DNA from: Planctomycetia bacterium | GTDB lineage: Bacteria > Planctomycetota > Planctomycetia > Pirellulales > UBA1268 | NCBI GenBank assembly: GCA_014192425.1 | Contig: BJHK01000002.1 | Coordinates: 174,147 to 238,146, forward strand | DNA: 64,000 nucleotides | Reading direction: 5' to 3' | Notes under the pieces: generated by a model | Seen by the model: the letters and a program-made list of their open reading frames with translations, nothing else | Databases searched by the model: none | Told to the model about the DNA's origin: nothing | Shown: positions 732 to 56,530 of the stretch, piece after piece | How the letters are laid out: the number at the start of each line of letters is the position of its first letter | How positions within the stretch are numbered: the stretch's first letter is position 1 | Translations under genes and position numbers: made by a program

Positions 732-2120
732 TCAGGCAAGAATATCGGCGAGCGGCCCGGCGGTGTGGATGCCCTTCAGTTCCTTGTCCGGCACCCCGAA
801 CGTCTCACGTTCGTCGCCGACGCACCGCAACAGGGCAAGATAGAAGTCGCTCATCGTCCGGTGCCCGGGTGCACCGTACTTGGGGAGCCTCAGGAAGCGG
901 CCGGCGGTCTTGAGCCGGCCGCCGAGATTCCCGACGAGGATCATCGGCCACTGCAGCGACGCGCCGTGGTGACTGTCGGATGAATCGCTCATCCAGACGA
1001 TGAGCGTGTTGTCCAGCATCGTGCCGCCGGCCTCCGGGATGGCAGCGAGCCGCGTGGCGATGTCCGCGACCCGGGTGGCGTGATACTGGCGGATGACGGA
1101 CTGCATCTTCAGCGACTCGGGGGTATGGGCCGAGTGTCCGATGGCATGGCCATCCGTGTTCACACCGAGTTCCTTCCAGGTTTTGTATCCGTGCGGGCCG
1201 CACGACGCATCCACGATCGCCACGTTCGTCAGGCCCGACGCAAGGGACGCGATGGCCAGCAGGGACTGGGCCTCGAACCGGTCGGTGAGCCTCTGGCCGT
1301 TGAACGCATCGATCACCGGAAGGTTGGCCTGCAGACGATCACGTATCTCGTGCACCTTGGCCTGCCGGTCTCGCATCTGCTCGAAGGTCTGGAGATACGC
1401 ATCGAGTTTCTCGCGGTCCATCGCCGGCAAGGCGGCTCGGACCCGCCGCACGTCGGCCTGGATGTAATCGAGGAGATGCTGCCGCGACTTGAAAAGTTTG
1501 GCAGCGTCGCCCTCGGCGACGCTGCCAAAGAGCGAAGCGAAGGCGACGTCCGGCCTGCAGACGATCGGCAGCGGCCGCTTGCGGTCCACGGCGGACACCG
1601 TTTGTGCGAAGACGGTGTTTGGGTCGTGGGAAATGCCCAGGCCCACGACGGGAATGATACCGGGAAGGCGTCCGGCCAGGGCGTGATCGATGGTCTGCCC
1701 AAGCGCCTCGTTGTGCGTCCCGTTGGCGAGGCCGGCGCGGGCGTTGTAGCAGCCGAGTGCACCGTAGCCCGAGCCGTGATTCGCGAAGGCCTCCCGCGAC
1801 GACAGGCCGAGGACGATCGACATCCGCTCCTTCAGCGGCGCGAGCGGCGCGAGCGGCTCGGGGAGTTCGAGATCGCTCAGCGGCAGGTCGGCCGGCGGAT
1901 CGTCCTTCGCCGACGGAGCGTTCTTGGGCTCGACCTGATTTCGCAACATTCCGTTCGACTCGAAGACGAAGACGAACCGCGGGGCGACGGCGCCGGCAGC
2001 CTGCGCGGCGAGCGCGTTCAGGAATGGCTGGAGGACGACGGCGCCGGCGCCCAGCGTCAGGCCCTTGATGACGCACCGCCGTTCAATACCCTCTGGCCCG
2101 ACGACGTTCGAAGGAAACAT
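732..2120 (-). CDS. DUF1552 domain-containing secreted protein
   Basis: About 462 residues. The start at 2120 (MFPSNVVGPEGIERR) has GGAG 8 nt upstream and is preferred over an earlier in-frame Met. The N-terminus carries RRCVIKGLTLGAGAVVLQPF, a twin-arginine-like export signal of the kind DUF1552 and DUF1501 proteins share. The body matches DUF1552 by its RFVFVFESNGM opening, a central segment with VAIVDASCGPHGY, a predicted metal or ligand region around VWMSDSSDSHHG, and the terminal FGVPDKELKGIHTAGPLADILA. DUF1552 proteins in planctomycetes are usually encoded next to a cytochrome-like DUF1592/DUF1588 partner; none is present here, because an IS91-like relic ends 72 bp upstream. The biochemical role of the family is unknown. 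Family call sure, function open. Confidence 0.88.
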   Translation of the reverse strand: MFPSNVVGPEGIERRCVIKGLTLGAGAVVLQPFLNALAAQAAGAVAPRFVFVFESNGMLRNQVEPKNAPSAKDDPPADLPLSDLELPEPLAPLAPLKERMSIVLGLSSREAFANHGSGYGALGCYNARAGLANGTHNEALGQTIDHALAGRLPGIIPVVGLGISHDPNTVFAQTVSAVDRKRPLPIVCRPDVAFASLFGSVAEGDAAKLFKSRQHLLDYIQADVRRVRAALPAMDREKLDAYLQTFEQMRDRQAKVHEIRDRLQANLPVIDAFNGQRLTDRFEAQSLLAIASLASGLTNVAIVDASCGPHGYKTWKELGVNTDGHAIGHSAHTPESLKMQSVIRQYHATRVADIATRLAAIPEAGGTMLDNTLIVWMSDSSDSHHGASLQWPMILVGNLGGRLKTAGRFLRLPKYGAPGHRTMSDFYLALLRCVGDERETFGVPDKELKGIHTAGPLADILA

Positions 2121-2191
2121 ACGGCGGTCTCCAACAGAAATTTGAACTTCGAGAACAACATTTACCACAGTATATCCTGGTCAATGGCCAC

Positions 2192-3672
2192 AGGATAGCC
2201 CGGTCAATGGCACTTCCGCGACCATGTGCACAGGCATTTCCGAGCCGATGAGCGGCTTGTGAGGCTGGTGCCGCGTTTTCCGGCACCCAATCAGCTGCAC
2301 CCGGAACGGCTGTCCTCCCATCTGGGGTGGCATTTCTCTTGCGTCGGTGCAGAGGCTCTCCAGGTCCGGCTTCCAGGCGGCTTTATTGTGACCTCGCGGC
2401 CGATGCCGTTCAGAGGCTGTGGATGTCGATCACGGGCAGCTCGTCGGGCGATGCCTGGAAGACGTCGCCCTTGTCAGATGCCTGGACGAGCTCGCCCTGG
2501 TCGGTCGGCGGGCCTCGAGCGGGCGAGAGCGGCGGCGGCTCGAGCGGTTCGCCCAGGTGTGTGAGAATCTTCCGGATCGGGCCCGTGTCGCGGACAGGAT
2601 GTCCGCAGCAACCGGAGGTTGCCAACAGTGCGAAGGCCAGGGATGGTTTCGCACTGGTAAAACAGTCTGAAAGCATTCAGCCGGATGTCGCCGCCGCAGT
2701 TCGGGCACTCGAGCGGAAACTCCTCTCCCTCCCGGGCCACGAGTTTCGCCCAGGCAATCCGTGAGGTGTCGTGCGAGCGGGGCTTATGATTTGCGTCGCA
2801 GCAGCCTCCCGTCGCGTGACCGTCGCCCCACATGCCCGCCGTTCGTGGCCTCGCGTGGCTGGCCGATGTTCCCGATTGCCAGCGCCGTGACGGCTTTTCG
2901 CAGCTTGTGGTTCGGCGCGAATACTCCGTGGTAGCGATGCCGGTGCTTCCGCGGCGGCGGCACGAGATCGGCGAGCCGGTCGAGGAACTCAAAAGGTGAG
3001 AGCTCGACGACGCCGTTCGCTCCCGGTCGCGTGGACTTGCGGCCGCGGCCGGGCCCGACCCAGGTGGTGGCTTTGTGTCTGGGCAGAACGTAGCGGATGC
3101 GGGTGATGCGGCCGTCTGGTCCGCGGATCACGGAGAGCCGCTCCAATGCGAAGGGTGGCCGGGCGCAGTATCGCAGCAGGTGTTCCAGACTCAGAAAATA
3201 GCTGGGCACGTTGCGGTCGATGAGTGTGATCCGGACACTGGCGTCGACTGACAACCCGCTGTTCTCCCAGGCGAGCATGTCGGCATCAGGAGGCCCGCCT
3301 GACGCCGCGAGCAGCAGTCGCTCGACTCAGCAAGAACAATCTTCGTGAGTGCGGCGATGGCTCGGGGTCGGTCGGCCAGCATGCCCCGCAGCCGCTTCGG
3401 CACGGAGATCACCCACTGCCGCACGGGCACCGGCGGGATGACGTGATCGGCGAGGTGCGCGGCCGTCTGGGTCATGTGGCGGCCGTTGCAGGACGGGCAG
3501 ACGCCGCGGCCCTTGCAGGAGAAGGCCACGACGAACGCCTGGCCGCAGCCCGTGCAGCGAGCACGGGCGAATCCGAAGCAGTGGATGCCGCACTCGAGAT
3601 AGCCGCGGAGTTCGTCCTCGACGTGTCCCGGCACGAGCCGCTCGGCGGCTTCCCGCCACTCTAGCCAGCTCG
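2192..3672 (-). mobile_element. IS91-like element A, decayed, right end at 2192
   Basis: The longest of six same-orientation relics in this region. Its transposase reads leftward and the conserved right end is at 2192, beginning AGGATAGCCCGGTCAATGG on the plus strand. The same end recurs at 5904, 12021, 15456 and 17747 and, diverged and inverted, at 36980. From 2210 to 2400 it shares an end subtype (GACCATGTGCACAGGC and onward) only with the copy at 17747. A diverged second copy of the terminal motif lies just outside at 2171-2191. The left end is undefined; similarity to copy B stops near 3672. Confidence 0.75.
2410..3672 (-). pseudogene. IS91-family transposase remnant
   Basis: Several frames are needed to read this protein. 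3672-3330 encodes the zinc-binding N-terminal domain (RCTGCGQAF, CKGRGVCPSCNGRHM, then VPVRQWVISVPKRLRGMLA). After a one-base shift near 3320 the frame jumps straight to MLAWENSGLSVDASVRI. As I remember the family, the segment usually lying between these, with the HUH catalytic histidines, is absent. 3278-2830 gives the middle of the transposase with HRHRYHGVFAPNHKLRKA. Further frameshifts near 2810 and 2600 lead to [16 protein letters not shown] and the terminal [13 protein letters not shown]91 transposases are rolling-circle Y-type enzymes; this copy cannot be functional. Family assignment is strong, the exact indels less so. Confidence 0.82.
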
Positions 3673-4218
3673 ATCAACGAACTTCCGACGCTCGGTGATG
3701 GAAGGCAAAGCGGCACATCAGCGAGTCCGTCAATCCTCAACTCATCTCCAGGAGCGTTCGCTGGTGGGGGCCTCGCCACACTACAGACAGGGGATCAAGT
3801 TCGGATCGACTTGAATACCAGACGTGTCGATACCCTCGTCGAACCTACAGAGTGGCTAGCGCGACCTTCCGTGCCGTTCGATACAAAGCCGGTAAGCGAC
3901 ACACCTTGGCAGGAACTATATCGACGCGATGTGGGGCAATTGCATCAAGGTGCGTGCCTTGTTTTGCATGTCACTACCGCGATGTGTGCCGCACACTCCC
4001 GCGGCATAACCACGAATGGTCCAACGCCTCGATTCGCTCTGCAAAAGCCCAATTGCCCTAACATTGCAGTACTTTCGCTGACCGCAAACGGGACAAGTCC
4101 GAAAGTTACGGAAGACTCAGTTGATTCGCCGCAGGCTGCATTGGCTGCCGCAGCGAATCACAATCGTTCCTGTACCACACTCTCAAAGTTGTCCCAGCGT
4201 TGGCAGCCAAGGACTTCC
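3673..4218. other. Gene-free, lower-GC stretch
   Basis: Between IS91-like copy A and the end of the repeat-rich surface protein I see no gene. Composition is clearly less GC-rich than the flanks and resembles the neighbouring surface-protein gene. An open plus-strand frame from 3811 runs into the antisense of that gene and has no protein-like features. Confidence 0.5.
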
Positions 4219-5382
4219 TTACTGAGGCTGAGGCAAGCGGACCAAACTCCAATGATCCGTTTTGCCGTTCTTGTGAAAAAGCGCTGGTGCATGCCCTTCG
4301 GTAAGGTTGCTCAGGCCGGCTTCGAGCACGGCATTCGCATTCGCTCCTACGGTCCATGCAGCGCGCTGAGTCTTTTGATCGACTGCGCCCAGAATGGGTT
4401 GCGTGCTATCGGTGACCGTATCGGTGTAGTTGCCTCGCAACTTTCCAGTTTCATCGATCGCGATTTGCAAAATGAGGTGAGGGTGTTGCTGTTCATTCTG
4501 AACCATCGCGAAAACACCTAAAGGAAGCCACTTCTCATCAGGAGAGGTTTTCGCCTCGGAACCGGCTTGGGCCAGATCAAATGCTTCCTGACTAAACTCT
4601 TCGGCCGTTCCGATTTCTTTTCCATCTTGAAGGATCGCGCCATTCACGCAAGTGACATTGGTTCCGTAATCGAAAGACAAAGGGGGATTGCTTCCGTATC
4701 CAGCATGGAGTGCGACATCCGTCCAAGGGGTGGCAGCCCATTCGGAACCAGCTGCCCAATTGGCACCTCGCCAAATGTTGGGATTCGCTTCATGCCAAGC
4801 TTGGCCGTACAAATCGTGTCGATCAAAGGAATTCCGAACCGCTGCATAACCTGCAGCAGCGTCTGCACCCGTCGCTTGAGGTTCGCGACGATTGGCAGCG
4901 GCCGATCCTGCGGCGACGCCTGCAGCGCCCGATGCCTTGGGTTCATTGCGATTTGCAGCAGAAGCGCCGGCAGCAGCACCCGCAGCGCCCGACGCTTTCG
5001 GTTCATTCCGATTGGCAGCAGCCGCACCAGCAGCCGCGGCCTGCGCTCCCGATGCCTTCGTTTCATTACGATTGTTCACCGCTGCACCGGCCGCAGGATT
5101 CTGTCCGTTGCCAGAATTGTTGTGTTTTTCATTTTCGGCACCTGCATGGCCCGCTTCATTGTGTTCAGCTTTCGGCTGCTGTTTGCTTTCTGACCAGCTT
5201 CCTCCCGGCGGCTTGCCGGCAGGTTCACCATGGCCCGAATTCTTGTTTTCTTTGTTCCCTTGTTTGGAACCCTCTTTGCCTCCCGACTTGCCCCCTTCTT
5301 TGCCGCCCCGCTGTGCGTGGGCAAACGACACGGTCAGCGACAACATCACCGCTATGGCTAAACAGAATATCTTTTTGGACAT
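4219..5382 (-). CDS. Repeat-rich secreted surface protein, planctomycete mu-protocadherin-like type
   Basis: 387 residues. Signal peptide MSKKIFCLAIAVMLSLTVSF, cleavage near AHA-Q; GGAGG lies 10 nt before the start. Residues 25-103 are Gly/Lys/Asn/Glu-rich. Residues 104-183 are four 20-residue tandem repeats built on NRNEPKASGAAGAAAG. Residues 184-387 form a globular C-terminal domain with a Trp-rich entry (WHEANPNIWRGANW), then VNGAILQDGKEIGTAEEF, and a beta-rich end reading HWSLVRLPQ. The DGKEIGTAEEF-type motif ('name of a parameter, then AEQ/AEEF') is what I remember from planctomycete proteins annotated as mu-protocadherin-like cell-surface proteins. No binding partner can be inferred. 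The gene is less GC-rich than its neighbours and lies between two IS91-like copies, which suggests transfer. Confidence 0.75.
   Translation of the reverse strand: MSKKIFCLAIAVMLSLTVSFAHAQRGGKEGGKSGGKEGSKQGNKENKNSGHGEPAGKPPGGSWSESKQQPKAEHNEAGHAGAENEKHNNSGNGQNPAAGAAVNNRNETKASGAQAAAAGAAAANRNEPKASGAAGAAAGASAANRNEPKASGAAGVAAGSAAANRREPQATGADAAAGYAAVRNSFDRHDLYGQAWHEANPNIWRGANWAAGSEWAATPWTDVALHAGYGSNPPLSFDYGTNVTCVNGAILQDGKEIGTAEEFSQEAFDLAQAGSEAKTSPDEKWLPLGVFAMVQNEQQHPHLILQIAIDETGKLRGNYTDTVTDSTQPILGAVDQKTQRAAWTVGANANAVLEAGLSNLTEGHAPALFHKNGKTDHWSLVRLPQPQ
4834..5073 (-). repeat. Four tandem 60-bp repeats within the surface protein
   Basis: Encodes four consecutive 20-residue units, each starting NRNE/NRRE, followed by a PKASGA-type core and an alanine-rich tail. 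The units have diverged (ETKASGAQ, EPKASGAA, EPKASGAA, EPQATGAD), so the array is not fresh, but it is long enough to expand or contract by slippage. Confidence 0.85.
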
Positions 5383-5668
5383 GGTTTTTTACCCTCCAGC
5401 GCTCGGGCCGAATCCCTCAGAATCAAAGCGGTTACGATCCACTTGCTCAAAACGAACAGAGCAATTGTTGTCCTTGACCCTTGCTTCCGCTAGTGCTTTT
5501 TCACAGCGAGTTTCGATTTCAGGCGGGCAAGGAGGGCTGAAGCAACGTCTCCTTTCGCTCCTCGAAAGAAGGCCAAGCGATGGAGTTTAGGAATGCCGGG
5601 GATCCGATGCAGGTTAGGATCCGTTTCACGGGCACTTAGCCTGCAACTTGCCAGCGGTCGTGCACGCA

Positions 5669-5903
5669 TCAGCGGAGCACATCGTGAATGACTTTTCCAT
5701 GCACATCCGTCAAACGAAAGTCGCGTCCTGCATAACGGTACGTTAGTTTCTTGTGATCCAATCCCGTCAGATGCAGTAGCGTCGCATGAAAACCGCGTAC
5801 ATGCACAGGATTCTCGACCGCAGCCCAACCCAACTCATCGGTTTTCCCATACGCCATTCCACCCCTAACGCCTGCACCGGCGAGCCACTGCGTAAATCCA
5901 CGA
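5669..5903 (-). pseudogene. 3' fragment of a DUF1501 protein, cut by IS91-like copy B
   Basis: Reads [19 protein letters not shown], then [40 protein letters not shown] and ends [10 protein letters not shown]. This is the characteristic C-terminus of planctomycete DUF1501 (sulfatase-fold, Tat-exported) proteins, where the conserved ENPVHV..LHAT..LHL.GLDH..L..R..GRD series is very well kept. The frame is intact from 5903 to the stop, but everything upstream (more than 350 residues by family) is missing: position 5904 is the first base of the IS91-like right end. No start codon remains, so this is a remnant and not a gene. Confidence 0.88.
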
Positions 5904-6482
5904 AGGATAGCCCGGTCAATGGCACTTCCGAACCGGTCTTCCGGCTGATGAGCGACGCGTGAGCGTAAGCAGGAGCGGCCCGGGCGTCCGGAGCGGGTTT
6001 CTCGAAACGCCCTGCACGCACTGCGGTGGCGTTTTTCTCGCGTCGGCGCAGACCGCGTCCCAGTCGGCCGTTCCCGTAACTTCGACGCCTCGCGGCCGAT
6101 GCCGGTCAGAGGCTGTGGATGTCGATCACGGGCAGCTCGTCCGGTGATCAACGCAATCAGTCGGATGTCGCCGCCGCAGTTCGGGCACTCGAGCGGAAAC
6201 TCCTCCCCCACCCGGTCACCAGGAGTTTCGCCCAAGCAATCCGTGACGTGTCATGCGAGCGGGGCTTTGGATTCGCGTCGCAGCAGCCTCCGGTGCCGTG
6301 ACCGTCGCCCCCATGCCCGCCGGTCGTGGCGTCGCACCGCTTGCCAACGTTACCAATCGCCAACGCCTCCGAAGCAGAGGATGCCGCACTCGAGATAGCC
6401 GCGGAGTTCGTCCTCGACGTGTCCCGGCACGAGCCGCTCGGCGGCTTCCCGCCACTCTAGCCAACTCTCGAGGTGAGGTGGA
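5904..6482 (-). mobile_element. IS91-like element B, internally deleted
   Basis: Right end at 5904, end subtype with CACTTCCGAACCGGTCTTCCG, shared with copies C and D. Moving right, it retains the transposase C-terminus ([11 protein letters not shown] at about 6110-6140, [16 protein letters not shown] at 6165-6215). It then joins, by deletion, the AIGNVGKRCDATTGG segment to the N-terminal part (HLESWLEWREAAERLVPGHV, 6390-6480). Thus the two ends of the transposase are fused with most of the catalytic core gone. The junction with DUF1501 coding sequence at 5903/5904 is exact. Confidence 0.75.
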
Positions 6483-7215
6483 CCCCGTTCTTTGGACAGT
6501 CGGGGGCTCTGTTTAAGGTGGAGCGCCACTAGACGGTGGCCCGCGAGACCCATGCCAAGCGTCTCGCGCGGCCACGAGGCTGTGGATGGTTGATGTACTA
6601 CCGAGAGCATCCAATAGTTGACACAACGAGCTGACGGTTCGGGGCTGCCCATGCCCCGAACCGTCGGACGTTCACTCCGGCCCTCCAGGCCTTCGTTCAC
6701 TCGATGCTGGCTGCGTTTCGGCTTCCTGCCTTCACTTGCCAGCAACGCCGCCTCTCAGGGCACGGGCAGCCCCTCACGGATGCATCGACGATGAGTGTCA
6801 ACAAGAACGTGCTCCCAGTAGTACCTATGGACATTCCTTCGTTCTGAGTCCGCGACCGCGATTCGCCGGCGCGTTGCGACGGCAGCCCGTGAGCTGATTT
6901 TTCAAGGCTCAATAGACCGCAGCAGACAGCGACCGTAAGAGATTCGTCCGCCACTCGCTCGTCAGACTACGATGTCCTCGTGGCGGTGCATGCCACGGAG
7001 CAGCCGGCGGTCGCAGGAGCCGTGCCCGTCCACGATCCCGGCCGTCTTGTCGATCCGCATGAACTGCTCAGCGAGTCGGGGCGACTCCCCCAAGCCGTCG
7101 AACTGCGGGCGAAGATCTGGGCGTCGGCGACGATGTCCATCTTGCCTGAGAAACAGCACATGGAAAAACTCCTGCGGGCAGGAGGGGAGGGGGCAGGGAA
7201 CCACGCGGCCGCCGA
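6476..7215. other. Gene-free stretch with mobile-element debris and a strong hairpin
   Basis: At about 6478-6500 the sequence GAGGTGGACCCCGTTCTTTG resembles the terminal repeats of IS3-family elements (tGGACCCC...TTGGACA), so a second element may have broken copy B here; I cannot find a matching other end. A perfect 13-bp inverted repeat lies at 6633-6665. From 6962 to 7204 both strands are open (minus strand ending RGMHRHEDIVV, plus strand with LPEKQHMEKLLRAG), but neither matches a family I recognise. No gene is supported. Confidence 0.4.
6633..6665. repeat. Perfect 13-bp stem hairpin
   Basis: GACGGTTCGGGGC at 6633-6645 pairs exactly with GCCCCGAACCGTC at 6653-6665 across a 7-nt loop. No T-tract follows on either strand, so it is not a standard intrinsic terminator. 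It lies in element debris, where it could be a subterminal hairpin of a lost mobile element. Confidence 0.85.
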
Positions 7216-9321
7216 CTACGGGAGTGCCTTCACGAACTCGATCCAGTCCGTCTCCAGTTGATCGAGCGGCTTGCCGTAGGCTTCTTCGAGGCTACGGATG
7301 CCTTTGCGGTCGTCGGCATAGTTCCGACAGTAGCGGGCGTACCAGGGAGACAGCAACTGCTTCTCCTGGAGGAAGAAGCACAGGTAGCGGGCCATGGCGT
7401 AGGCGACGTCGATCCGCTCGGCGAAGCACCGGTCGCTGTCTTCGAGAAACGCCCGCAACGGGAAGGTCTGCCCGTCCGCGAGAGCCTTCTTGAGCAGCGG
7501 CAGCCGCCAGTTCACCAGGCCGACGAGCCCGTCCGGCCGGGGGTCGGATTCCTCGTAGAGAGAACCGAGGCCCTCGCGGACCCAGATCGGGTGGGTCTGG
7601 CCCAGCGCTTCCATGTCGGCGAAGTGCAGGGCATGCGTGAACTCGTGGGCGGTCGTCCCCGTGCCGGTGCCCCGTCGGATGACGAGCGTGCGGGTGCCGT
7701 GGTTGTAGAAGCCGGCGGAGGTCCGCGCCTCCGGCCCGCCCCCGCGCAGGGCAACGAACGCCTCCGCGTCGTCGGTGAGGACGACGAGGAAGCCGCCCTG
7801 GGCCTTGTTCCTGAACAGCGTCTTGCCGTGCAGGCCGGCGATCGTCCGCAGGATGTCGATCGTTTCCTTCCCGGCCGCCGCCCCGCCGGCGGCGATGACG
7901 ACGTAGGGATCGTTCGCCTCCGACACGACCGTGTGGCTCTTGCCCAGCCTGTCGAGCAGCAACGTGGTCGCCTTCGTGAGAAACTCGGCCACGATCCGCT
8001 CCCTGTCGGCGAGCAACGCCTTGAACCGCTCGTCCTCGCGGAGCAGGTCGAATGCGTTGTCGGTCTGCAGCATGCCGAACTGCGTGAAGCCCGTCGCCAC
8101 GGCCCGGTCGAGGAGGGCCAGCGCCTCCGCCTCGTCGCCACGGAGCGCGCTCTCCCGGGCGCTGAGGTACAGCGTCTGGGCATATCCGGCCGCCGTGGGG
8201 CCGCCCGGCCGCGGGGTCGGCCGGCCGGTCTTCAGCCGGGCGACGAATCCGGCGCAGCCGCGATCGAGCGTGTCGATGGGCAGGTCGACCGGGTCGCCGG
8301 CCGGCGGCTTGACGCGGATGGACCGGTCGCCCAGTGCGAGCAGCGTGGCGGGAAGGTCCGCGGCCGTTCCGGTCTTCCAGGTGCGGAACAGGCCGAACTC
8401 GACCTGGCACAACTGCCCGCTGGTGTTTTTCCGGTGGTGCACGAACGCCGGAAACGAGATCTCCCACTGCGGCCAGCGGCCGGGGTCGTGGATGACGAAC
8501 CGCTCGCCGACGAGGTCGTAGCCGACCAGCAGCACCATGTGATCGAAGGTGGCGGCCTTGGGTTCTGGCTGGTAGTGCCCCGACACACCGAGGAGAACGG
8601 GATGATTGTCCCGCAGGCATGACAGCAGCCGGATCCGCTCGGCGAGGAAGTCGTCGTCGGTGACCCCGGGCCAGCTCTCCTCCGAGACCACCTGGAGGTC
8701 GGTCTTCCTGAGCGCGGCGATCAGTTCCTGGGCATAGCAGCCGCGCTTGCCATCCAGGCCGCCGAGCTCGTTCACCGTGTCCTGCGCGACCGGCTTTCCC
8801 AGGAAGGTTGACACCATCTCGACGCAGGCCTCCCCGCAGAAGTCCGGCTTCTGCCTGACGTAGGGGATGTCGAGGACGTGCCGCGGCCTGGCGACCGGAT
8901 AGACGATCGCCTCCCGGATATCGCCGCTGCCGAAGGCGACCGGCTTGCCCTCCGTGTCGGTGCCGGACAGGCGTCGTTCGGCACACTCCGTCACGCTGAC
9001 CAGCCGCCGCCGACCGTCCCGATCGACGACGCGGACGCACCGTGGGCCGGCCGCGAGATCGATCGCGAACCTTTGTACCGTCTCGAGCGCCGCAGTCCGG
9101 GTCTTGCCGTCATCCGCCAAGATGAGGATCGCATCCGGCCGGATGCGAAGGATCGTGCCGCGAACGACGGACCCATCCTGCAGGCCGATGTCATCGGCGC
9201 GGCCGACGGACACCGCCGCGAGGCCGATGACGAGGCACCAGGCCGCCCACTGCCGGCGAATGACGAGGAGGCCACGGTCCGATGCCGGACCGGCGGCCCA
9301 GTTTCCCCCGGTGAGTTTCAT
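7216..9321 (-). CDS. Secreted C39-like peptidase / TPR-like / gluzincin-like multidomain protein
   Basis: 701 residues from the start at 9321 (MKLTGGNWAAG, GGGA about 8 nt upstream). A hydrophobic segment at residues 20-45 looks like a signal or anchor. It is followed by a small beta domain (IGLQDGSVVRGTILRIRPD). Residues about 145-340 resemble peptidase C39-like domains: VRQKPDFCGEACVEMVSTFL holds the candidate nucleophile Cys, and FDHMVLLVGYD plus FVIHDPG supply the His and Asp/Asn. A TPR-like helical stretch follows (ARESALRGDEAEALALLDRA). Residues about 480-700 resemble gluzincin metallopeptidases, with HEFTHALHF (HExxH) near residue 558 and a downstream Glu in REGLGSLYEE. Two protease-like catalytic sites in one chain is unusual. 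It is probably exported; substrate unknown. The gene is flanked by mobile debris on one side and a divergent gene on the other. Confidence 0.8.
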   Translation of the reverse strand: MKLTGGNWAAGPASDRGLLVIRRQWAAWCLVIGLAAVSVGRADDIGLQDGSVVRGTILRIRPDAILILADDGKTRTAALETVQRFAIDLAAGPRCVRVVDRDGRRRLVSVTECAERRLSGTDTEGKPVAFGSGDIREAIVYPVARPRHVLDIPYVRQKPDFCGEACVEMVSTFLGKPVAQDTVNELGGLDGKRGCYAQELIAALRKTDLQVVSEESWPGVTDDDFLAERIRLLSCLRDNHPVLLGVSGHYQPEPKAATFDHMVLLVGYDLVGERFVIHDPGRWPQWEISFPAFVHHRKNTSGQLCQVEFGLFRTWKTGTAADLPATLLALGDRSIRVKPPAGDPVDLPIDTLDRGCAGFVARLKTGRPTPRPGGPTAAGYAQTLYLSARESALRGDEAEALALLDRAVATGFTQFGMLQTDNAFDLLREDERFKALLADRERIVAEFLTKATTLLLDRLGKSHTVVSEANDPYVVIAAGGAAAGKETIDILRTIAGLHGKTLFRNKAQGGFLVVLTDDAEAFVALRGGGPEARTSAGFYNHGTRTLVIRRGTGTGTTAHEFTHALHFADMEALGQTHPIWVREGLGSLYEESDPRPDGLVGLVNWRLPLLKKALADGQTFPLRAFLEDSDRCFAERIDVAYAMARYLCFFLQEKQLLSPWYARYCRNYADDRKGIRSLEEAYGKPLDQLETDWIEFVKALP

Positions 9322-9684
9322 CTGGATTTCCCGAAATCGTGGTGGCGCCACGTGCTCCGGGCCGTGGCGGTTCCCACCAACTCGTGGCGTGGTCACGGCA
9401 GAATCGCTTTCGTCATTGATCCCGACGCCGTGCGGCGTCGGTCATCATCGCCTCTGCAGAGTGTGGCAGTGGAGCAGGAGCATGTCCAGCATCGCCTCGC
9501 GGCCATGCCGCGGGCGTCAGCGATCATCGATCCGCAGGTGAAACATGGCTTTGGCGGCTTGTTTTCGCGGTGAGGACGCACTAGGCTCGTCCGCGGTGAC
9601 GGGCCGTGCGGCCGCGACGCGGCGGGCGATTCCGTCTGCCAGGCGACGGGCAGACAAAGCGATGGCACTGGGAGACGGCCAGCC
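9322..9684. other. Divergent intergenic region between two secreted-enzyme genes
   Basis: No gene seen. It separates the divergent starts at 9321 and 9685 and must hold both promoters; no clear -35/-10 pair stands out in this GC-rich DNA. A perfect 8-bp hairpin (CCGACGCC, loop GTGC, GGCGTCGG) lies at 9422-9441, upstream of the minus-strand gene. Confidence 0.5.
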
Positions 9685-11628: not shown

Positions 11629-11674
11629 TGGCCGCCCGTCACCGCCCGCCGTGCCACGTTCGCGGAACGCGGAG

Positions 11675-12019
11675 TTACTGTGTGCGGCCGCGATTCTGAC
11701 GCAGCTGAAACTCCTCGGGGATCACGAAGTCGTCGGTCGGGCTGCCGTCCGGCTCGGGAATGATCTGCAGCGTCTCGATGCGCGGAAGTTCGACGTCTTC
11801 CTTCTGCATCAGTGCCGTCAAGGTCTTGGGGGAGATGGTATTGAGTTGCTTGAGGCAGAGGGGACCTTTTCGCGCGGCGCGGGCTTGGGCGACGGCCACG
11901 GCGTCAGGGGATTCGAGGGCCGTGACGTTGGGAAGTTCGCCATTCCACGCGTTGAGGCCAGCGAGGGTCTTCGCGGCATCGGCGTCGAGCGTGGTCAGGC
12001 CGGTGCACGAGAGGCGGTA
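11675..12019 (-). pseudogene. 3' fragment of an LRR-like repeat protein, cut by IS91-like copy C
   Basis: An intact minus-strand frame runs from the element junction at 12019/12020 to the stop at 11675. It begins YRLSCTGLTTLDADAAKTLA and continues GLNAWNGELPNVTALESPDA. It then gives GPLCLKQLNTISPKTLTALM and a non-repetitive tail ending LRQNRGRTQ. The periodic 'L..L..L....A..LA...G.L.LP.L..L' pattern is the same as in the intact gene at 13842-15263, so this is a paralogue of that family. The 5' part is missing and the first base beyond the fragment belongs to the IS91-like right end. An in-frame Met at 11899 could in principle give a 74-residue product, but no ribosome site precedes it. Confidence 0.75.
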
Positions 12020-12020
12020 A

Positions 12021-12556
12021 AGGATAGCCCGGTCAATGGCACTTCCGCACCGGTCTTCCGGCTGATGAGCGACTCGTGAGCGTAGGGAGGAGCGGCCCGG
12101 GCATCCGGAGCGGGTTTCTCGAAACGCCCTGCACCCCCTGCGGTGGCGTTTTTCTCGCGTCGGCGCAGACCGCGTCCCAGTCGGCCGTTCCCGTGGCTTC
12201 GCCGCCTCGCGGCCGATGCCGGTCAGAGGCTGTGGATGTCGATCACGGGCAGCTCGTCGGGCGACACCTGAACCGCTTCGCGGTCGTCATGAGCCTGGAC
12301 GAGTTCGCCCCAGTCGGTGGGCGGTCCACGAGCCGGCGAGATTTCGCGTCGCAGCAGCCTCCGGTGCCGTGACCGTCGCCCCCATGCCCGCCGGTCGTGG
12401 CGTCGCACCGCTTGCCAACGTTACCAATCGCCAACGCCGTGACTGCCCGCCTGAGCTTGTGGTTCGGCGCGAATACTCCGTGATACCGATGACGGTGCTT
12501 CCGCGGCGGCGGGACGAGATCGGCGAACCGGTCCAAGAACTCAAATGCCGACCGCT
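12021..12556 (-). mobile_element. IS91-like element C, internally deleted
   Basis: Right end at 12021 (AGGATAGCCCGGTCAATGGC), subtype shared with copies B and D. The transposase C-terminus ([30 protein letters not shown]) is joined by deletion directly to GGHGGDGHGTGGCCDAK, losing the cysteine-rich ECPNCGG segment. Upstream parts FEFLDRFADLVPPPRKHRHR and HGVFAPNHKLRRAVTALA remain. Similarity stops near 12556. Confidence 0.75.
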
Positions 12557-12633
12557 CGAATCTTGGGACAAAAGCAGAAGAACATATAGCCGGCGCAAAG
12601 CAGCCGCCCACTGACCGGGGGGCCGGATGCGGG

Positions 12634-12795
12634 TCACGGTCCCGGCCCGCGGATAGTTGGAATTCGGACGGGCGTATTGAGTCGCGTTGCATCCATGCCC
12701 TGGGCATCGGCATCCAGCACGAGCACCAGCGACCCAAGTGCGATGAAAGCAAACGCCAGCGATCGAGCGGGCGATCGAATCAATAGGTGCACCAT
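12634..12795 (-). pseudogene. 5' fragment of a secreted-protein gene
   Basis: Start at 12795 with a textbook GAGGAGGT ribosome site 6 nt away. The 53-residue product is MVHLLIRSPARSLAFAFIAL, then GSLVLVLDADAQGMDATRLN, and a tail TPVRIPTIRGPGP before a stop. The first 32 residues are a clear signal peptide (cleavage after DADAQ or so). Such a strong start followed by an almost immediate stop, 78 bp before IS91-like copy C, suggests a gene whose body was lost when the element arrived or decayed. Whether the LRR-like fragment on the other side of copy C (11675-12019) was its 3' part cannot be shown. Confidence 0.5.
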
Positions 12796-12872
12796 AAAAG
12801 TACCTCCTCGTGTCTCGCGATTGGACAGCACCATGTCGTTTAACAACGCCCTGTCATTTAATGCCCTGCCGG

Positions 12873-13784
12873 TCAAGGCTTCTTCACACCCGAGTAGGGA
12901 TAGTTCGAGACGGTGTCCCAGACGATCTGCTGGACGATCTTCCGCTGCTCCTCGGTAATCGGCGCCAGATCATTGAACGCCTCCGGGAAGGTCTTGCCGC
13001 CACCAAACTTGAGGCTCGAACAATCGGGATTCAGCCCGATGGGCGAGACGCCGTACATCGTGGCGACGTTGCAGTAGGCGAACAGCGTGCGCAGATGCGA
13101 GCCGGGCCTCCACATCGGGTCGTGCGAGCGGGTCCATGGCCCCCACAGTTCCCCAGGGTCGGTGATTCCGGGGAATTTGCCCGCGGCCACCATTTCGATG
13201 AGTTTGCACGTTGCCTCTTCGACAGGGGAAATCACCATCACCTTCCGACCGTGCTTCTCGTTGATTTGGTCGGTGAGCTTCTCCAGGGCGAGGAGACCGT
13301 CCGGTGAGTCTTTACGTGGTTTCCAATGGAGCACCTTCTTGTCGCCACGGGGTTCGGTATGGGGCGTGTAATACGACTGCCAGACGAGGCGGAAATTCGG
13401 ATTGTTCTTGACGCCCGCGGCACAGAGGATCGCGGGAGTCGAATCGAGCCCGACTGCGCCCGCCCAATTACCCGCGTCCGGGTAGCAGTGCGGCGTTGCG
13501 AGCAGCAGCATGTCGAAATCGCCGCGCTCGAGCCCGTCGAGCTTGCCGGGCCGGATCCCCTTCTGCCCTATCATGTCGTGCCAGGTGCCGAGGTATGGCC
13601 CGCCCAGGGTCTTGTGCATGTCGATGCCAGCGGCCTTGACGACGGCATCCTCGCAGCCGAACAGGATCAGCATGTAGCCGACCCGGGCACCGGCCGGCTT
13701 GGCCGGCGCTGGGTCCGCGGCCACGCCGCACGCGGCGCACAATGCCATCACGGCCAACGCACTCAGTTTCACCATCGGATTCAT
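12873..13784 (-). CDS. Secreted protein of unknown function
   Basis: 303 residues from the Met at 13784 (MNPMVKLSALAVMALCAACG), chosen over the Met five codons earlier because AAGGAG sits 7 nt before it. The leader ends near AACGVAADP; the Cys could make it a lipoprotein, but the lipobox is imperfect. The mature part starts VGYMLILFGCEDAVVKAAGI and has an alpha/beta feel: DFDMLLLATPHCYPDAG, LVWQSYYTPHTEPRG, VMVISPVEEATCKLIEMVAA, FAYCNVATMYGVSPIGLNPD and a terminal helix. The mix of a Gly-rich first strand, conserved His and an SGNH-like middle is suggestive, but I cannot find the full GDSL block set, so no enzyme name is given. It is followed by the LRR-like gene on the same strand, 57 bp upstream in sequence. 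Confidence 0.7.
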   Translation of the reverse strand: MNPMVKLSALAVMALCAACGVAADPAPAKPAGARVGYMLILFGCEDAVVKAAGIDMHKTLGGPYLGTWHDMIGQKGIRPGKLDGLERGDFDMLLLATPHCYPDAGNWAGAVGLDSTPAILCAAGVKNNPNFRLVWQSYYTPHTEPRGDKKVLHWKPRKDSPDGLLALEKLTDQINEKHGRKVMVISPVEEATCKLIEMVAAGKFPGITDPGELWGPWTRSHDPMWRPGSHLRTLFAYCNVATMYGVSPIGLNPDCSSLKFGGGKTFPEAFNDLAPITEEQRKIVQQIVWDTVSNYPYSGVKKP

Positions 13785-13841
13785 CGTTTGCTCCTTCATT
13801 GGTTACGAACTCATGGCTGTCGAAAATATCAATTGAATCGC

Positions 13842-15263
13842 TCACTTTTTCGGCTTTAGCTCCCGCCCCGCTTCGCCCGGCGGCAGGCTGATCTTTGGGT
13901 TGGCCCCGAGGGCGACACGGGCCGCGGGCGAGGCCTTCTTCAGTCCCTTGAGTGAGACCGGGCCGATCGCCTTGGCCAGCGATTCAGCGGCCTCGTCACC
14001 GATCTCCTCCAGTCCGTCGAGGACGAGATCGCCCTCGTGCGCGGCAAAAGCCCGGGCCACCGGGACGGAGAGCGACTTGAGGCCGGAAAGGTCGACCTTG
14101 CCCTTGTGGGTCGCCAGCGCCGCGGCGACGTCGTCGGAGATCGTCGTCAGCTTCGCGAACTTCAAGTCGCCCGGCTGGGCCGCGTACTTTGCGGCGAGCG
14201 GCGCGGATGTGAGCGAAGTCAGCGAGGGCAGGCCGTTGAGTTTGCCCTTGGACTCAGCGAGCGCCTTGGCCACGTCGTCGGTGATCTCGGCGACTCCGTT
14301 GAGCGTGCTATGCGGCCCCCCTCCATACCTCGACACCACCGCGACCGCAAACGCCGGCGAAGTCAGTTTCTTCAAACCGTTGAAGTCGATCATCCGATGC
14401 GGCCCCGAAGCCATCTGCTTGGCGATGGCCTCTGCCGTCTCGTCGGTGAGTTCGGGGCCGAACATTCGGATGTCGAGGATGCCGCCGCCCTTCGCGAGCG
14501 CCACCGCCGTGGCGGGGGAGAGCGTCTTCAAGCCCCACATCCGCATGTTCGTGGGCGGTCCCGACATGACCGCGGCCGCCTCGGGGGAGATCGATTCCAA
14601 GCTGTGCATGCCGAAGCCGTGGCGACTGGCGACAATCGCCGCGCCGGCCTCGGGAGAGAGTTCCGTCAGCCCGATGTCGATCCAGCGGGGAAAACCCTTG
14701 CCAGCCTCGAGATATGCCGGCGGGCAAAGCGCCCGGGTGATCTCGGGCGTGATCCGCCGCACACTGCCGAGCCAGACCACCTCCTGCCGCCCCAGCCGCT
14801 CCGCCAGCGGAAGCGACGTCAGGCTTGGGAGGCTGTCGAGCCGAGTGTCGCCGACGCGCTTGGCCAGTGCCCCCGCAGTCTCGTCCGATAGTTCCTTCAA
14901 GCCCAGGACCAGCACGCCGGTGTGCGGAGCGAGTGCCTTGGCAGCCGCGGGGGATAATTCAGCCAGCTTCGGCAGACCGAGGCGGCCCTCGCATTGTGCC
15001 AGAGCGGCAGCCGACTCGAGCGTGAGCGTGGTCAGGGCATCGAAATAGAGGTCTCCTTTGTAGTTGGCCAGAACTGCCGCCACTTCGGGGGACAAATCCG
15101 TCACGCTCAACTGTAGGGAGTTGGGCTGCTTGAGCAGTTCGGTGGCCTGCTCGACGGTCAGCGTCTTGGCTCGCTTTGGATCGACTTTCTGAGCATGGAC
15201 TTGCCCCTGCACAAGTACGCTGAGAAGCATCACGAGTGCGATGGTGGTGAGGAATCGAGGCAT
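13842..15263 (-). CDS. Secreted leucine-rich-repeat-like protein
   Basis: 473 residues. Start at 15263 (MPRFLTTIALVMLLSVLVQG) with AGGAT 6 nt upstream and a clear signal peptide ending near VHAQ. From residue 35 nearly the whole protein is degenerate repeats of about 23-25 residues with the form 'L(S/T).E.A..LA...G.L.L..L..L', for example LTLESAAALAQCEGRLGLPK, LSPAAAKALAPHTGVLVLGL and ISDDVAAALATHKGKVDLSG. This is a solenoid pattern common in planctomycete exported proteins and distinct from canonical LRRs. It ends with a Lys-rich GREAGRELKPKK-like tail. A role in protein binding outside the cytoplasm is likely by fold only. A truncated paralogue lies at 11675-12019. Confidence 0.8.
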   Translation of the reverse strand: MPRFLTTIALVMLLSVLVQGQVHAQKVDPKRAKTLTVEQATELLKQPNSLQLSVTDLSPEVAAVLANYKGDLYFDALTTLTLESAAALAQCEGRLGLPKLAELSPAAAKALAPHTGVLVLGLKELSDETAGALAKRVGDTRLDSLPSLTSLPLAERLGRQEVVWLGSVRRITPEITRALCPPAYLEAGKGFPRWIDIGLTELSPEAGAAIVASRHGFGMHSLESISPEAAAVMSGPPTNMRMWGLKTLSPATAVALAKGGGILDIRMFGPELTDETAEAIAKQMASGPHRMIDFNGLKKLTSPAFAVAVVSRYGGGPHSTLNGVAEITDDVAKALAESKGKLNGLPSLTSLTSAPLAAKYAAQPGDLKFAKLTTISDDVAAALATHKGKVDLSGLKSLSVPVARAFAAHEGDLVLDGLEEIGDEAAESLAKAIGPVSLKGLKKASPAARVALGANPKISLPPGEAGRELKPKK

Positions 15264-15298
15264 GCGCAGATCCTGTCCGATTGTTTGATACTGGCGGA

Positions 15299-15455
15299 CT
15301 ACTTGCCCGCACTCTTGGTTACGCCGGTTCGCTTGTTCTGTTTGTCGTAGACGACCAGGTGGGTCCACTGCGTGTCCCCCACGTTGACGAGGACCGCCAC
15401 CGCATGGCGTCCCGTCCCGTCCCGTCCACATAGTACTTCACGTTGGAGACGCCGA
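15299..15455 (-). pseudogene. 3' fragment of an unrecognised gene with a slippage frameshift, cut by IS91-like copy D
   Basis: From the junction at 15455 the minus strand reads GVSNVKYYVDGTGRD. A frameshift inside four tandem GTCCC units (plus strand, near 15405-15425) is then needed to continue in the well-formed frame HAVAVLVNVGDTQWTHLVVY, then DKQNKRTGVTKSAGK and a stop. The two frames join naturally at the short tandem repeat. The text looks like the C-terminal edge of a secreted protein, but I do not recognise the family. As at 5903 and 12019, the fragment starts exactly where the IS91-like right end stops. Confidence 0.6.
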
Positions 15456-15833
15456 AGGATAGCCCGGTCAATGGCACTTCCGCACCGGTCTTCCGGCTGA
15501 TGAGCAACTCGGGAGCGTAGGGCGGAGCGGCCCGGGCGTCCGGAGCGGGTTTCTCGAAACGCCCTGCACCCCCTGCGGTGGCGTTCTTCTCGCGTCAGCG
15601 CAGACCGCGCCCCAGTCGGCCGTTCCCGTGGCTTCGACGCCTCGCGGCCGATGCCGGTCAGAGGCTGTGGATGTCGCTCACGGGCAGCTGGTCGGGCGAC
15701 ACCTAAACCAATTTCGTGCGCGAATACTCCGTGATACCGATGACGGTGCTACCGCGGCGGCGGGACGAGATCGGCGAGCCGGTCCAAGAACTCAAATGGC
15801 GAGCGCTCGACGCCGCCATTGGCCCCCGGGAAA
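15456..15833 (-). mobile_element. IS91-like element D, strongly shortened
   Basis: Right end at 15456, subtype of copies B and C. After the terminal 250 bp and a short C-terminal transposase stretch, the sequence jumps to the segment encoding FEFLDRLADLVPPPR and GANGG(V/A)ERSPFEF. Less than 400 bp remain. The left boundary is set at about 15833, where the 5' fragment of a GH-like paralogue begins. Confidence 0.7.
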
Positions 15834-16002
15834 CCTCGCGCCGGGATTCGTGATGACCGACGGCGCCATTCCCTCCTCGTTCCGAGGCTGCCGCGTCGTT
15901 TCGCCTGCCTCACACATGCTCGGAACCGCCAGGGTGAGCACGATTGCCGCTTCAAGCGTCCAGAAATGCGGGGATCGCCGGGGGGGAATGTCTCATCTTC
16001 AT
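15834..16002 (-). pseudogene. Duplicated 5' leader of the adjacent GH32/43-like gene
   Basis: The segment 15875-16025 is roughly 85% identical by eye to 17545-17695, the ribosome site, start and signal-peptide region of the intact gene at 16037-17668. It starts MKMRHSP like its parent. An extra G in a G-run (seven versus six) shifts the frame after seven residues; corrected, it would continue with an AAIVLTLAVPSMCEAGE-type signal. It then ends at IS91-like copy D. It is therefore a tandem duplicate of the leader only, or the remnant of a whole paralogue. Confidence 0.65.
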
Positions 16003-16036
16003 ACTTTCTCATTGTTGTTGGTGGTCGTTTCTTTGG

Positions 16037-17668
16037 TCATTGGCCAAACCGGAAGCTGTAGAGGTCCGCATCCTTCAAAACAAACCTGAGCTTTATGGGT
16101 TTTCCGCTGATTCTTGACACATCGGCGTTACCGGCCCATGTCACGGTACGTGAAATCTGGTCGCCGAAGATTGCATCACATTGGGAAAGGGTGAAACCTT
16201 CGATTGGCCGGCCTTCACCGCTCTGCACCTCGATGCGCACTTCTCCTACCGCAGAGGTGGCGTAGTTGATCTCCAGAGAGTTGCCCTCGAATATCAGGGG
16301 CTTCGTCAATAGCTCGCCCCCCCGATACGGAGCATGAACGGAGACAAACCCGTCGGTGCGCAGCGTGCACCTCACAAGATGAGATCTGCTCGGTTCGGCC
16401 AGCTGGTCCATGCCCTGGGTGTAATACAGGGACAATTCTTCCGGCCCGGCAGAGAGAACACCGCAGGCGGCGTAGTTGTTCCGTCCGCTCCAGCTCCTCC
16501 GGTCGAGCCCGGGGCGCAGGAAGGATTCCATGAAAGTCCTTTCGAAGCGAAGCCCGTCCCGGGACGTCATGAAGGCACCGTCGTTCACATTTTGTCTGTT
16601 ATCCGGGCCTACCTTGAAATTATCGAGCTCTGCATCGCTCAATGCTTTTTTATAAACCATTCGGCAGGGAAACGACAGGAGGAGATGCGGCGCCCGGAAG
16701 TACGGCTGCACCTCGCTTGCGTAGAGATGTTCCTCCACCGGCGCGTCGCCGCAACTGATCGGCTCGACGTCTTTCCAATGGATGAAGTCTTCGGATCGGG
16801 CCCGACCGAACCACCGCCACCCCTTTTCATCATTGCCAGCACCGGGAGCGGCCATGGGTTGCTTGTTGTGGTCGATCCAGATGCGAAAATACGCAAAGTA
16901 GCATTTATCGGAATCGGACCAGAAACAAGGGATGGAGCATCCGTCCGAGCGCAGCGGCCAGTTCTTCTTGTTGAGCAGAGGCTCCTTGGAGATCTTCCTC
17001 CAGTGGATGCCGTCCCCCGATACGTAGCCCCAGAATGGTCTTCCATCTTTGAAAGATCCAGTGAGGGCTTTGAAGCGCTCTGAAGCCGGGACGCCGGGAC
17101 GGGTGTCGATGAACGGCGTGAAGTTGTGACTCGCCGCGGGATCGTCAGGCGGAAGCACAATATTGTTCGTGCGGACTCTCGAGCCGGACTTTTGGTCCGT
17201 AAATTCATACAAGGTCAAGGACGGCTTGATCCAGCGAATACCATCCTCACTGAGCGCGACGCAGGTCACCTCCCGGCCACGGATGGCCTTTCCGTCTTTG
17301 TCGAACCAACTGGGCCAGCCCCGGTAATACATGCGGAATTGAGGGCTGTCTTTCGGATGGTCTTTATCCGCCAACACCGTCACGTACCCCGTATGAGCTC
17401 CTTCCCAGGGCTGATCGAAGACGATCGCCGTCTCCTTCCGCTGAGGCGAATGGAGCCGCAGCTCCGTGCCCCTCATGTCTTCGATCAGGAATCGGTCCGT
17501 GAAGAGCTCGCGACGCGACCCGATTCTGAGCGGGGCTACGGCGGCGGGCGCGGCGCGGGTGGCGGGTTCGCCTGCCTCACACATGCTCGGAACCTCTAGG
17601 GTGAGCACGATTGCCGCTACAACCGCCCACAAACGCGTGGATCGCCGGGGGGAATGTCTCATCTTCAT
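16037..17668 (-). CDS. Secreted glycoside-hydrolase-like (GH32/43 beta-propeller type) protein
   Basis: 543 residues; AAGGAG 5 nt before the ATG at 17668. Signal peptide MKMRHSPRRSTRLWAVVAAI ending near CEAGEP. The mature protein opens with ELFTDRFLIEDMRGTELRLH and then shows repeated propeller-type motifs: FRMYYRGWPSW, VTCVALSEDGIRWIKPSL, FWGYVSGDGIHWRKI, FGRARSEDFIHWKD and GAFMTSRDGLRFERTF. The repeated 'S.DGI.W.K' signature is what identifies five-bladed glycosidase-like proteins of the GH32/GH43 superfamily in planctomycetes. A C-terminal jelly-roll-like domain follows (GEVRIEVQSGEGRPIEGFTL). Catalytic acidic residues cannot be assigned with confidence. Role, by similarity: processing of extracellular glycans. 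It is bracketed by IS91-like copies D and E. Confidence 0.75.
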   Translation of the reverse strand: MKMRHSPRRSTRLWAVVAAIVLTLEVPSMCEAGEPATRAAPAAVAPLRIGSRRELFTDRFLIEDMRGTELRLHSPQRKETAIVFDQPWEGAHTGYVTVLADKDHPKDSPQFRMYYRGWPSWFDKDGKAIRGREVTCVALSEDGIRWIKPSLTLYEFTDQKSGSRVRTNNIVLPPDDPAASHNFTPFIDTRPGVPASERFKALTGSFKDGRPFWGYVSGDGIHWRKISKEPLLNKKNWPLRSDGCSIPCFWSDSDKCYFAYFRIWIDHNKQPMAAPGAGNDEKGWRWFGRARSEDFIHWKDVEPISCGDAPVEEHLYASEVQPYFRAPHLLLSFPCRMVYKKALSDAELDNFKVGPDNRQNVNDGAFMTSRDGLRFERTFMESFLRPGLDRRSWSGRNNYAACGVLSAGPEELSLYYTQGMDQLAEPSRSHLVRCTLRTDGFVSVHAPYRGGELLTKPLIFEGNSLEINYATSAVGEVRIEVQSGEGRPIEGFTLSQCDAIFGDQISRTVTWAGNADVSRISGKPIKLRFVLKDADLYSFRFGQ

Positions 17669-17697
17669 GCTTTCTCCTTGTTGTTGTTCGTAGTTTC

Positions 17698-17746
17698 CTA
17701 GCAGCCCGTTATGGCGAAAATAAAATCCGCCTTCACGGGGACGGTG
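17698..17746 (-). pseudogene. Possible 3' tail of a truncated gene at IS91-like copy E
   Basis: Reading from the element junction, the minus strand gives TVPVKADFIFAITGC and a stop at 17698. It is only 15 residues, so chance is possible. It is listed because three other copies of the element also abut a 3' coding tail in the same orientation, and because the ADFIF-type ending resembles the ADLYSFRFGQ end of the neighbouring GH-like protein. Confidence 0.2.
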
Positions 17747-18220
17747 AGGATAGTCCGGTCAATGGCACTTCCGCGACCATGTGCACAGGCATTTCCGAGC
17801 CGATGAGCGGCTTGTGAGGCTGGTGCCGCGTTTTCCGGCACCCAATCAGCTGCACCCGGAACGGCTGTCCTCCCATCTGGGGTGGCATTTCTCTTGCGTC
17901 GGTGCAGAGGCTCTCCAGGTCCGGCTTCCAGGCGGCTTTATTGTGACCTCGCGCCCGGCTGGGGTCAGAGGCTGTGGATGTCGATCACGGGCAGCTCGTC
18001 GGGCGATGCCTGGAAGACGTCGCCCTTGTCAGATGCCTGGACGAGCTCGCCTCAGTCGGTGGGCGGTCCGCGAGCCGGCGAGATTTCGCGTCGCAGCAGC
18101 CTCCGGTGCCGTGACCGTCGCCCCCATGCCCGCCGGTCGTGGCGTCGCACCGCTTGCCAACGTTACCAATCGCCAACGCCGTGACTGCCCGCCTGAGCTC
18201 GTAGTTCGGCGCGAATACTG
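17747..18220 (-). mobile_element. IS91-like element E, right-end part
   Basis: Right end at 17747 with one substitution (GGATAGTCCGGTC). The next 200 bp are almost identical to copy A (2192-2400), defining end subtype A. It continues with the transposase C-terminus and, after deletion, GGHGGDGHGTGGCCDAK and AVTALAIGNVGKRCDA. It breaks off near 18220 into unrelated sequence ahead of the haem dehydrogenase gene. Confidence 0.75.
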
Positions 18221-56499: not shown

Positions 56500-56530
56500 G
56501 ACGCGGGCCGCGGCCCTCGCGAAAGAGATC

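What the first reader, a model, noticed from the sequence alone, without database searches (positions are those of the whole stretch)
2192..18220. IS91-like right ends repeatedly abut truncated genes
The same terminal sequence (AGGATAGCCCGGTCAATGGC on the plus strand) occurs at 2192, 5904, 12021, 15456 and 17747, all in one orientation. At 5904, 12021 and 15456 (and perhaps 17747) the next base beyond the end belongs to the 3' part of a gene whose 5' part is missing: DUF1501, an LRR-like protein and an unknown. Fragments keep reading frame up to the junction. IS91-family rolling-circle transposition is known to allow one-ended events and capture of adjacent DNA. An ordered series of gene tails all on the same side suggests repeated one-ended insertion or deletion adjacent to the end, and makes this a good place to see how this planctomycete element family reshapes genes.
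Basis: partly seen in the sequence, partly recalled or inferred. Interest (0 to 1): 0.7.

Follow-up and report, generated by a model that had tools for sequence, protein, structure and literature searches.

The report
Decayed IS91-like relics beside genes
The repeated 20-base end is the starting end of an old, mostly broken family of rolling-circle insertion elements in a planctomycete; two of the five copies here sit against genes that lost their front part, most likely through later loss of DNA between copies rather than through a special way of jumping.

Summary
The end sequence is real: 2192, 5904, 12021, 15456 (exact) and 17747 (1 mismatch), all +, 0 expected. It lies 3' of a decayed HUH transposase gene, so it is the origin (ori) end of an IS91/ISCR-superfamily element of about 1.9 kb; this genome has 29 copies with up to 2 mismatches. 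The truncated-gene claim holds at two of five ends: a DUF1501 tail (5904) and an LRR-like tail (12021). At 15456 there is an unidentified remnant of about 50 codons; at 2192 and 17747 the neighbours look complete. Over 189 ori ends of this genome and relatives, coding sequence reaches the junction in 52 (33 tails, 19 heads), against about 68% of 588 interior windows: no rule and no fixed side. Copies are anchored at ori and ragged at the other end: 6 of 117 that could be followed reach the ter region. The five window copies all have internal deletions and are mosaics of one another, and no orphan DUF1501 head was found in the assembly. That fits exchange and deletion among relics better than direct one-ended insertion. 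Ordinary in kind; the ori:ter imbalance is the interesting part.

The parts
2192..3671 (-). Element copy A: ori end at 2192, transposase remnant (Y2_Tnp) on the minus strand, internal deletion, far end truncated at 3671
   Evidence: Maps to L062 positions 1-379, 389-1004, 1283-1659; Y2_Tnp E 2e-10 in 2784-3278
5904..6474 (-). Element copy B: ori end, two internal deletions, far end truncated
   Evidence: L062 1-245, 383-606, 1561-1666; mosaic of C-type and A-type blocks
12021..12559 (-). Element copy C: ori end, internal deletion, far end truncated
   Evidence: L062 1-322, 513-727
15456..15829 (-). Element copy D: ori end, internal deletion, far end truncated
   Evidence: L062 1-245, 631-740; with L063 to about 15829
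17747..18219 (-). Element copy E: A-type ori block joined to a C-type body
   Evidence: L062 1-322, 513-644; identity 91-100% to A, then 99-100% to C
22343..22414 (-). Orphan internal fragment of the element, no ori end
   Evidence: L062 520-591
36933..36981 (+). Ori-end remnant in the opposite orientation
   Evidence: 2 mismatches; L062 2-47 matches the minus strand here
5669..5902 (-). 3' end of a DUF1501 gene (77 codons and stop), 5' part missing up to the ori end
   Evidence: Profile 316-390 of 390; relatives
11675..12019 (-). 3' end of an LRR-like gene (114 codons and stop), 5' part missing up to the ori end
   Evidence: Paralogues at 52-67% identity
15301..15455 (-). Short unidentified coding remnant beside copy D
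   Evidence: About 50 open codons, no Pfam hit
732..2168 (-). DUF1552 (HXXSHH) gene, apparently complete, next to copy A
   Evidence: Profile 1-307 of 307
16037..17668 (-). Apparently complete gene of unknown family next to copy E
   Evidence: No Pfam hit; signal-peptide-like start judged by eye

Best explanation
The shared sequence is the origin (ori) end of an IS91/ISCR-superfamily rolling-circle element of about 1.9 kb with one HUH transposase, which spread through this planctomycete genus. Shown: the end is sharp, lies 3' of the transposase gene and sits at a weak target (R A|AGGATAG; on the transposase strand CTATC-CTTY); the opposite end is ragged and most copies that could be followed are truncated. 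Shown for the window: the five copies have internal deletions and are mosaics of one another, and no separate head of the cut DUF1501 gene was found in the assembly. Inferred: copies landed mostly outside coding sequence; direct-orientation copies then exchanged sequence and lost the DNA between or beside them, which left an ori end against the tail of a partly deleted gene at two places. How the ori-anchored truncation first arose (early stop of copying, or deletion) is not settled.
For: Element identity: Y2_Tnp in copy A, Zn_Tnp_IS91 and Y2_Tnp in L063, HUH in 10 of 10 examined. Ragged far end: 111 of 117 followed copies stop before the ter region. Internal deletions in 5 of 5 window copies. 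Mosaics: E is 91-100% A-type then 99-100% C-type; a 96-bp block is identical in B, C and E while neighbouring blocks differ. Loss: 741 bp and 313 bp remain between B or C and the next gene, with no Pfam hit in the 3 frames scanned of 10 listed; 14 DUF1501 matches in the genome are 13 near full-length genes and this tail. No one-sided rule over 189 ends.
Against: No locus before deletion was seen. The assembly is about 96% complete in 70 contigs, so a head could lie in a gap; the same orphan-head test was not made for the LRR-like gene. The ori:ter imbalance (207 against 22 by 18-mers) is more than plain deletion readily explains. At the 90-nt scale tails outnumber heads 43 to 23, though interior windows lean the same way. 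Copy C has CTTG three bases beyond its alignment break.
Confidence: 0.6

Rival explanations
1. One-ended rolling-circle transposition made these copies: copying began at ori, stopped early at a chance terminator inside or beyond the element, and the products landed in genes; adjacent host DNA was carried or lost in the process.
For: Ori ends far outnumber ter-side ends (207 against 22). 6 of 117 followed ori copies reach the ter region, while 9 of 12 ter sites with at least 2 kb held have an ori (most of these loci came from a transposase search; of 5 found by the ter motif itself, 3 do). One-ended transposition of IS801 made 26% of trapped insertions (PMC3189936, passages). Weak excess of RAAG and CAAG near 77 far breaks (7 against 3.5 and 4 against 1.3).
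Against: The window copies have internal deletions in 5 of 5, whereas IS801 fragments are continuous. No known tetranucleotide lies at the alignment break in 5 of 5. The excess at 77 breaks does not survive 12 tests. Insertion alone does not remove the head of a gene.
Confidence: 0.27
2. Plain insertion of full-length elements followed by neutral decay; ori ends are only better conserved than ter ends and so easier to see.
For: Near full-length copies with open transposase frames exist in relatives. The ter side is more divergent between subfamilies, which lowers its detection, and the ter 18-mer lies inside the end.
Against: Extent measured by alignment shows the same bias: 65 of 117 followed copies end before reference position 400. 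The missing half of the gene was not found beyond the element in the two window cases or in 4 of 4 relatives with room to look, as far as frames were scanned.
Confidence: 0.1

Closest known systems
IS801 right-end fragments in Pseudomonas syringae (IS91 family; PMC3189936, passages read)
   Same: Many copies keep the right (ori) end and lack the left end; the authors judged most genomic fragments to be products of reorganisation rather than of one-ended transposition.
   Different: The trapped IS801 fragments are continuous and end in a known tetranucleotide; the five window copies have internal deletions and no such tetranucleotide at the break. Here an ori excess is seen across 22 genomes of one genus.
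ISCR elements (IS91-related; PMC6218425, passages read)
   Same: HUH transposase, ori end 3' of the transposase gene; only one tyrosine at the RYCARPP site here (that ISCR transposases have a single catalytic tyrosine is recalled, not read).
   Different: ISCR1 is tied to resistance genes and class 1 integrons; nothing of that kind was seen in the window. No transposition evidence in either case.
Helitrons (Helraiser; PMC4778049, passages read)
   Same: Rolling-circle model with one loosely defined end that can be bypassed; new ends arise beside truncated copies.
   Different: Eukaryotic, with a helicase domain; no capture of host sequence was shown here.

Membership tests
IS91/ISCR superfamily | Transposase with Zn_Tnp_IS91 and Y2_Tnp domains | tested here: met
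   L063: both above cut-off; copy A: Y2_Tnp remnant
IS91/ISCR superfamily | HUH motif | tested here: met
   HLH in 10 of 10 transposases examined
IS91 in the strict sense | Two catalytic tyrosines (recalled) | tested here: inconclusive
   One tyrosine at the RYCARPP site in 10 of 10 and none four residues before it; the catalytic role of this site was not tested. For this reason filed only under the superfamily
IS91/ISCR superfamily | No terminal inverted repeats | tested here: met
   Neighbouring ends under 3 kb apart: 36 same direction, 12 facing, 9 back to back
IS91/ISCR superfamily | Insertion next to a tetranucleotide such as GAAC or CAAG | tested here: inconclusive
   Weak R A|AG preference over 192 ends, near CAAG but not strict
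IS91/ISCR superfamily | No target duplication | not tested
   No empty site found
IS801-type one-ended product | Continuous fragment with intact right end | tested here: not met
   Right end present, but internal deletions in 5 of 5 window copies
IS801-type one-ended product | Far end at GAAC, GGAC, CAAG or CGAC | tested here: not met
   None at the alignment break in 5 of 5; CTTG, the complement of CAAG, lies three bases beyond the break of C; breaks are uncertain by some bases
Non-mobile RNA repeat | Match to an Rfam family or a tRNA | tested here: not met
   0 Rfam matches in window 1-24000; the one tRNA is at 23830

The most novel reading that the evidence does not exclude
In this genus the bare ori end (30-300 bp) is itself a mobile unit: short ori-anchored fragments are copied by a transposase acting in trans and stop at loose or chance terminators, much as LINEs leave 5'-truncated copies. 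Ori ends then outnumber ter ends about nine to one, and new copies land on the ends of older ones in tandem.
Probability: 0.25. Interest if true: 0.55.

Novelty: new member of a known kind. Interest (0 to 1): 0.33.

Why it matters
It shows how relics of a rolling-circle element can look like one-sided gene capture: the ori end stays recognisable after the rest has gone, and direct-repeat copies invite local exchange and deletion. The genus offers 207 countable ori ends in 22 genomes (my sum), so the question how often IS91-type copying stops early in nature could be measured once closed genomes exist.

Tried and rejected
Window DNA against the genus for an empty site: the listed matches in other genomes fall in element sequence, but only 13 candidates per genome were scored and the list was cut, so this is no proof of absence. 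Folding of ori ends as single-stranded DNA: none of five folds better than shuffles by a clear margin (z from -0.34 to 1.05). Element as an inverted-repeat pair: rejected. Ter end: sought by aligning near full-length copies; it stayed ragged and is not claimed. The coding test is a codon-usage score at one cut-off; it does not call the decayed DUF1501 tail at 5904, so 52 of 189 is probably an undercount. The 189 ends include a few from other genera (G022, G024, G037), one doubtful site (L030, no element similarity beyond the motif) and one site counted twice (L018/L051). Of the 52 coding frames 50 went to Pfam; the second copy of the duplicate (L051:2601-3086) and a 39-codon frame (L254) were left out; of 192 ends 19 had no reference match and 56 ran to the end of the held sequence; 117 were counted. 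Ter 18-mer: 22 matches, 2 in the backward control; ori 18-mer: 0 in the control. Papers: PMC3189936, PMC6218425, PMC4778049, PMC2754498 and PMC9208149 were seen as passages found by terms (the PMC2754498 passages concern IS911, not IS91); other papers as search listings only. A description of this planctomycete element was not found by the searches; the library lacks most subscription journals. ISfinder could not be searched.
Full report
What was checked. The 20-base end occurs at 2192, 5904, 12021 and 15456 without mismatch and at 17747 with one, all on the plus strand, with none expected by chance. A match at 36962 with two mismatches is on the other strand. The host assembly G000 (3.98 Mb, 70 contigs, about 96% complete) has 29 copies with up to two mismatches, 10 forward and 19 reverse, so the common direction in the window is local. 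An 18-base form with one mismatch is found in 25 of 40 genomes, G000 included; the 22 genomes of the genus hold 207 matches by my sum.

What it is. Copy A (2192-3671) carries a Y2_Tnp remnant on the minus strand. Near full-length copies in relatives, such as L063, encode a 534-residue protein with Zn_Tnp_IS91 and Y2_Tnp. Ten of ten transposases examined share an HLH (HUH) motif and one tyrosine in RYCARPP. The motif end lies 3' of the transposase gene, where IS91-type elements have their ori end (PMC3189936, passages; PMC6218425, passages). Over 192 deduplicated ends the flank reads R (69%) A (79%) before AGGATAG, loosely like the CAAG target of IS801. The ends are not an inverted-repeat pair, and Rfam has no match in window 1-24000. 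The transposase search of titled contigs returned planctomycete MAGs for the most part.

Anatomy of the five copies. Mapped on L062: A keeps 1-379, 389-1004, 1283-1659; B keeps 1-245, 383-606, 1561-1666; C keeps 1-322, 513-727; D keeps 1-245, 631-740; E keeps 1-322, 513-644. None reaches the ter region near 1900 and all five have internal deletions. They are mosaics: E is A-type in its first four blocks (91-100%; 54-81% to C) and C-type after that (99-100%); B is C-type at its ori end, A-like further in, identical to C and E over 96 bp, and A-type (99%) at its far end. C and E share one deletion junction, with about 40 bases of common text before it, behind different ori blocks. I read this as exchange between neighbouring copies.

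The truncated genes. At 5904 the last 77 codons of a DUF1501 gene remain, and nearly all listed relatives match from residue 1-3 on. At 12021 the last 114 codons of an LRR-like gene remain; the 18 best paralogue matches start at residue 2-8. At 15456 there is a frame of about 50 codons without a family. At 2192 and 17747 the neighbours look complete. The heads were not found beyond the elements: 741 and 313 bp remain before the next gene, and the 3 frames scanned of 10 listed gave no Pfam hit. The 14 DUF1501 matches of the genome are 13 near full-length genes and this tail, so the assembly shows no orphan head. The LRR-like family has 45 match segments in this genome; an orphan head was not sought there.

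Is it a rule? Of 189 ends with enough flank, a codon-usage test calls coding sequence right up to the junction in 52 (33 tails, 19 heads; 120-base window), against about 68% of 588 interior windows. The tail:head ratio does not differ from the control (Fisher p 0.46); with a 90-base window it is 43 to 23, and the interior windows lean the same way. Pfam shows domains cut at the junction in both directions. Tails above the family cut-off: L239, L127, L208, L234, L249, L263 and, starting 22 residues in, L119; below it: L227, L146, L075. Heads above the cut-off: L077, L113, L171, L214, L237; below it: L042; L122 is an ISL3-type transposase start. In four tail cases with room to look (L127, L208, L239, L263), the frames scanned on the far side within 1-2 kb carry other domains.

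Ori-anchored copies. Of 192 ends, 117 could be followed: 6 reach the ter region, 111 stop earlier, 42 of them before reference position 100 and 65 before 400. A ter-side 18-mer at the same stringency gives 22 matches in the 22 genomes, with 2 in the backward control, against 207 for ori. This motif lies inside the ter end and may be less conserved, so 22 is a lower bound. Conversely 9 of 12 ter sites with at least 2 kb held have an ori within 2.6 kb; most of these loci came from a transposase search, and of the five that the ter-motif search found, three do. Plain decay explains this imbalance least. It fits one-ended copying, shown for IS801 at 26% of trapped insertions, but the window copies do not fit that pattern: internal deletions in 5 of 5 and no known tetranucleotide at the alignment break in 5 of 5, although C has CTTG three bases further. 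Over 77 breaks RAAG, CAAG and, on the other strand, GCAC are mildly raised, but not after 12 tests.

Verdict. The window holds decayed copies of an IS91/ISCR-superfamily element. Two of five ends abut beheaded genes, most likely through deletion and exchange among direct-repeat copies. PMC3189936 reports a like view for IS801 fragments. It is a new, here unnamed, member of a known kind; the ori:ter imbalance deserves a test in closed genomes.

Noticed in passing
window 435-533 and 22414-22512: A 99-nt direct repeat at 98% identity; the second copy abuts the orphan element fragment at 22343-22414.
   Followed up: no
window 6596-6823: A 228-bp repeat, 100% identical at G000:C7:93671-93898 and 95% at C10:118945-119172; possibly another small mobile element.
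   Followed up: no
window 15900-16031 and 17567-17697: The 5' end of gene 16037-17668 is duplicated (about 90%) just beyond its own stop codon, as if a tandem paralogue had lost its body beside copy D.
   Followed up: partly
G000 contigs C15, C47, C50 (position 241) and C44, C49, C52 (position 142); G002 C258, C267, C329 (position 107): Contigs begin at a constant distance from the ori end, which suggests collapsed near-identical and therefore recent copies.
   Followed up: no
L006 403-519 (G000:C20): Two ori ends face each other 117 bp apart, a palindrome-like miniature.
   Followed up: no
window 56528-56584 and 59632-59688: A 57-nt direct repeat at 98% identity.
   Followed up: no
L302, L304, L309, L313 and others: Several contigs that carry the element are titled Candidatus Kuenenia stuttgartiensis, though contigs of the same length appear in same-genus genomes here; the titles look like wrong labels.
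   Followed up: no
window 2169-2188: A second, 3-mismatch ori-like end directly before the one at 2192, one of several tandem ends under 3 kb apart in the same direction.
   Followed up: partly
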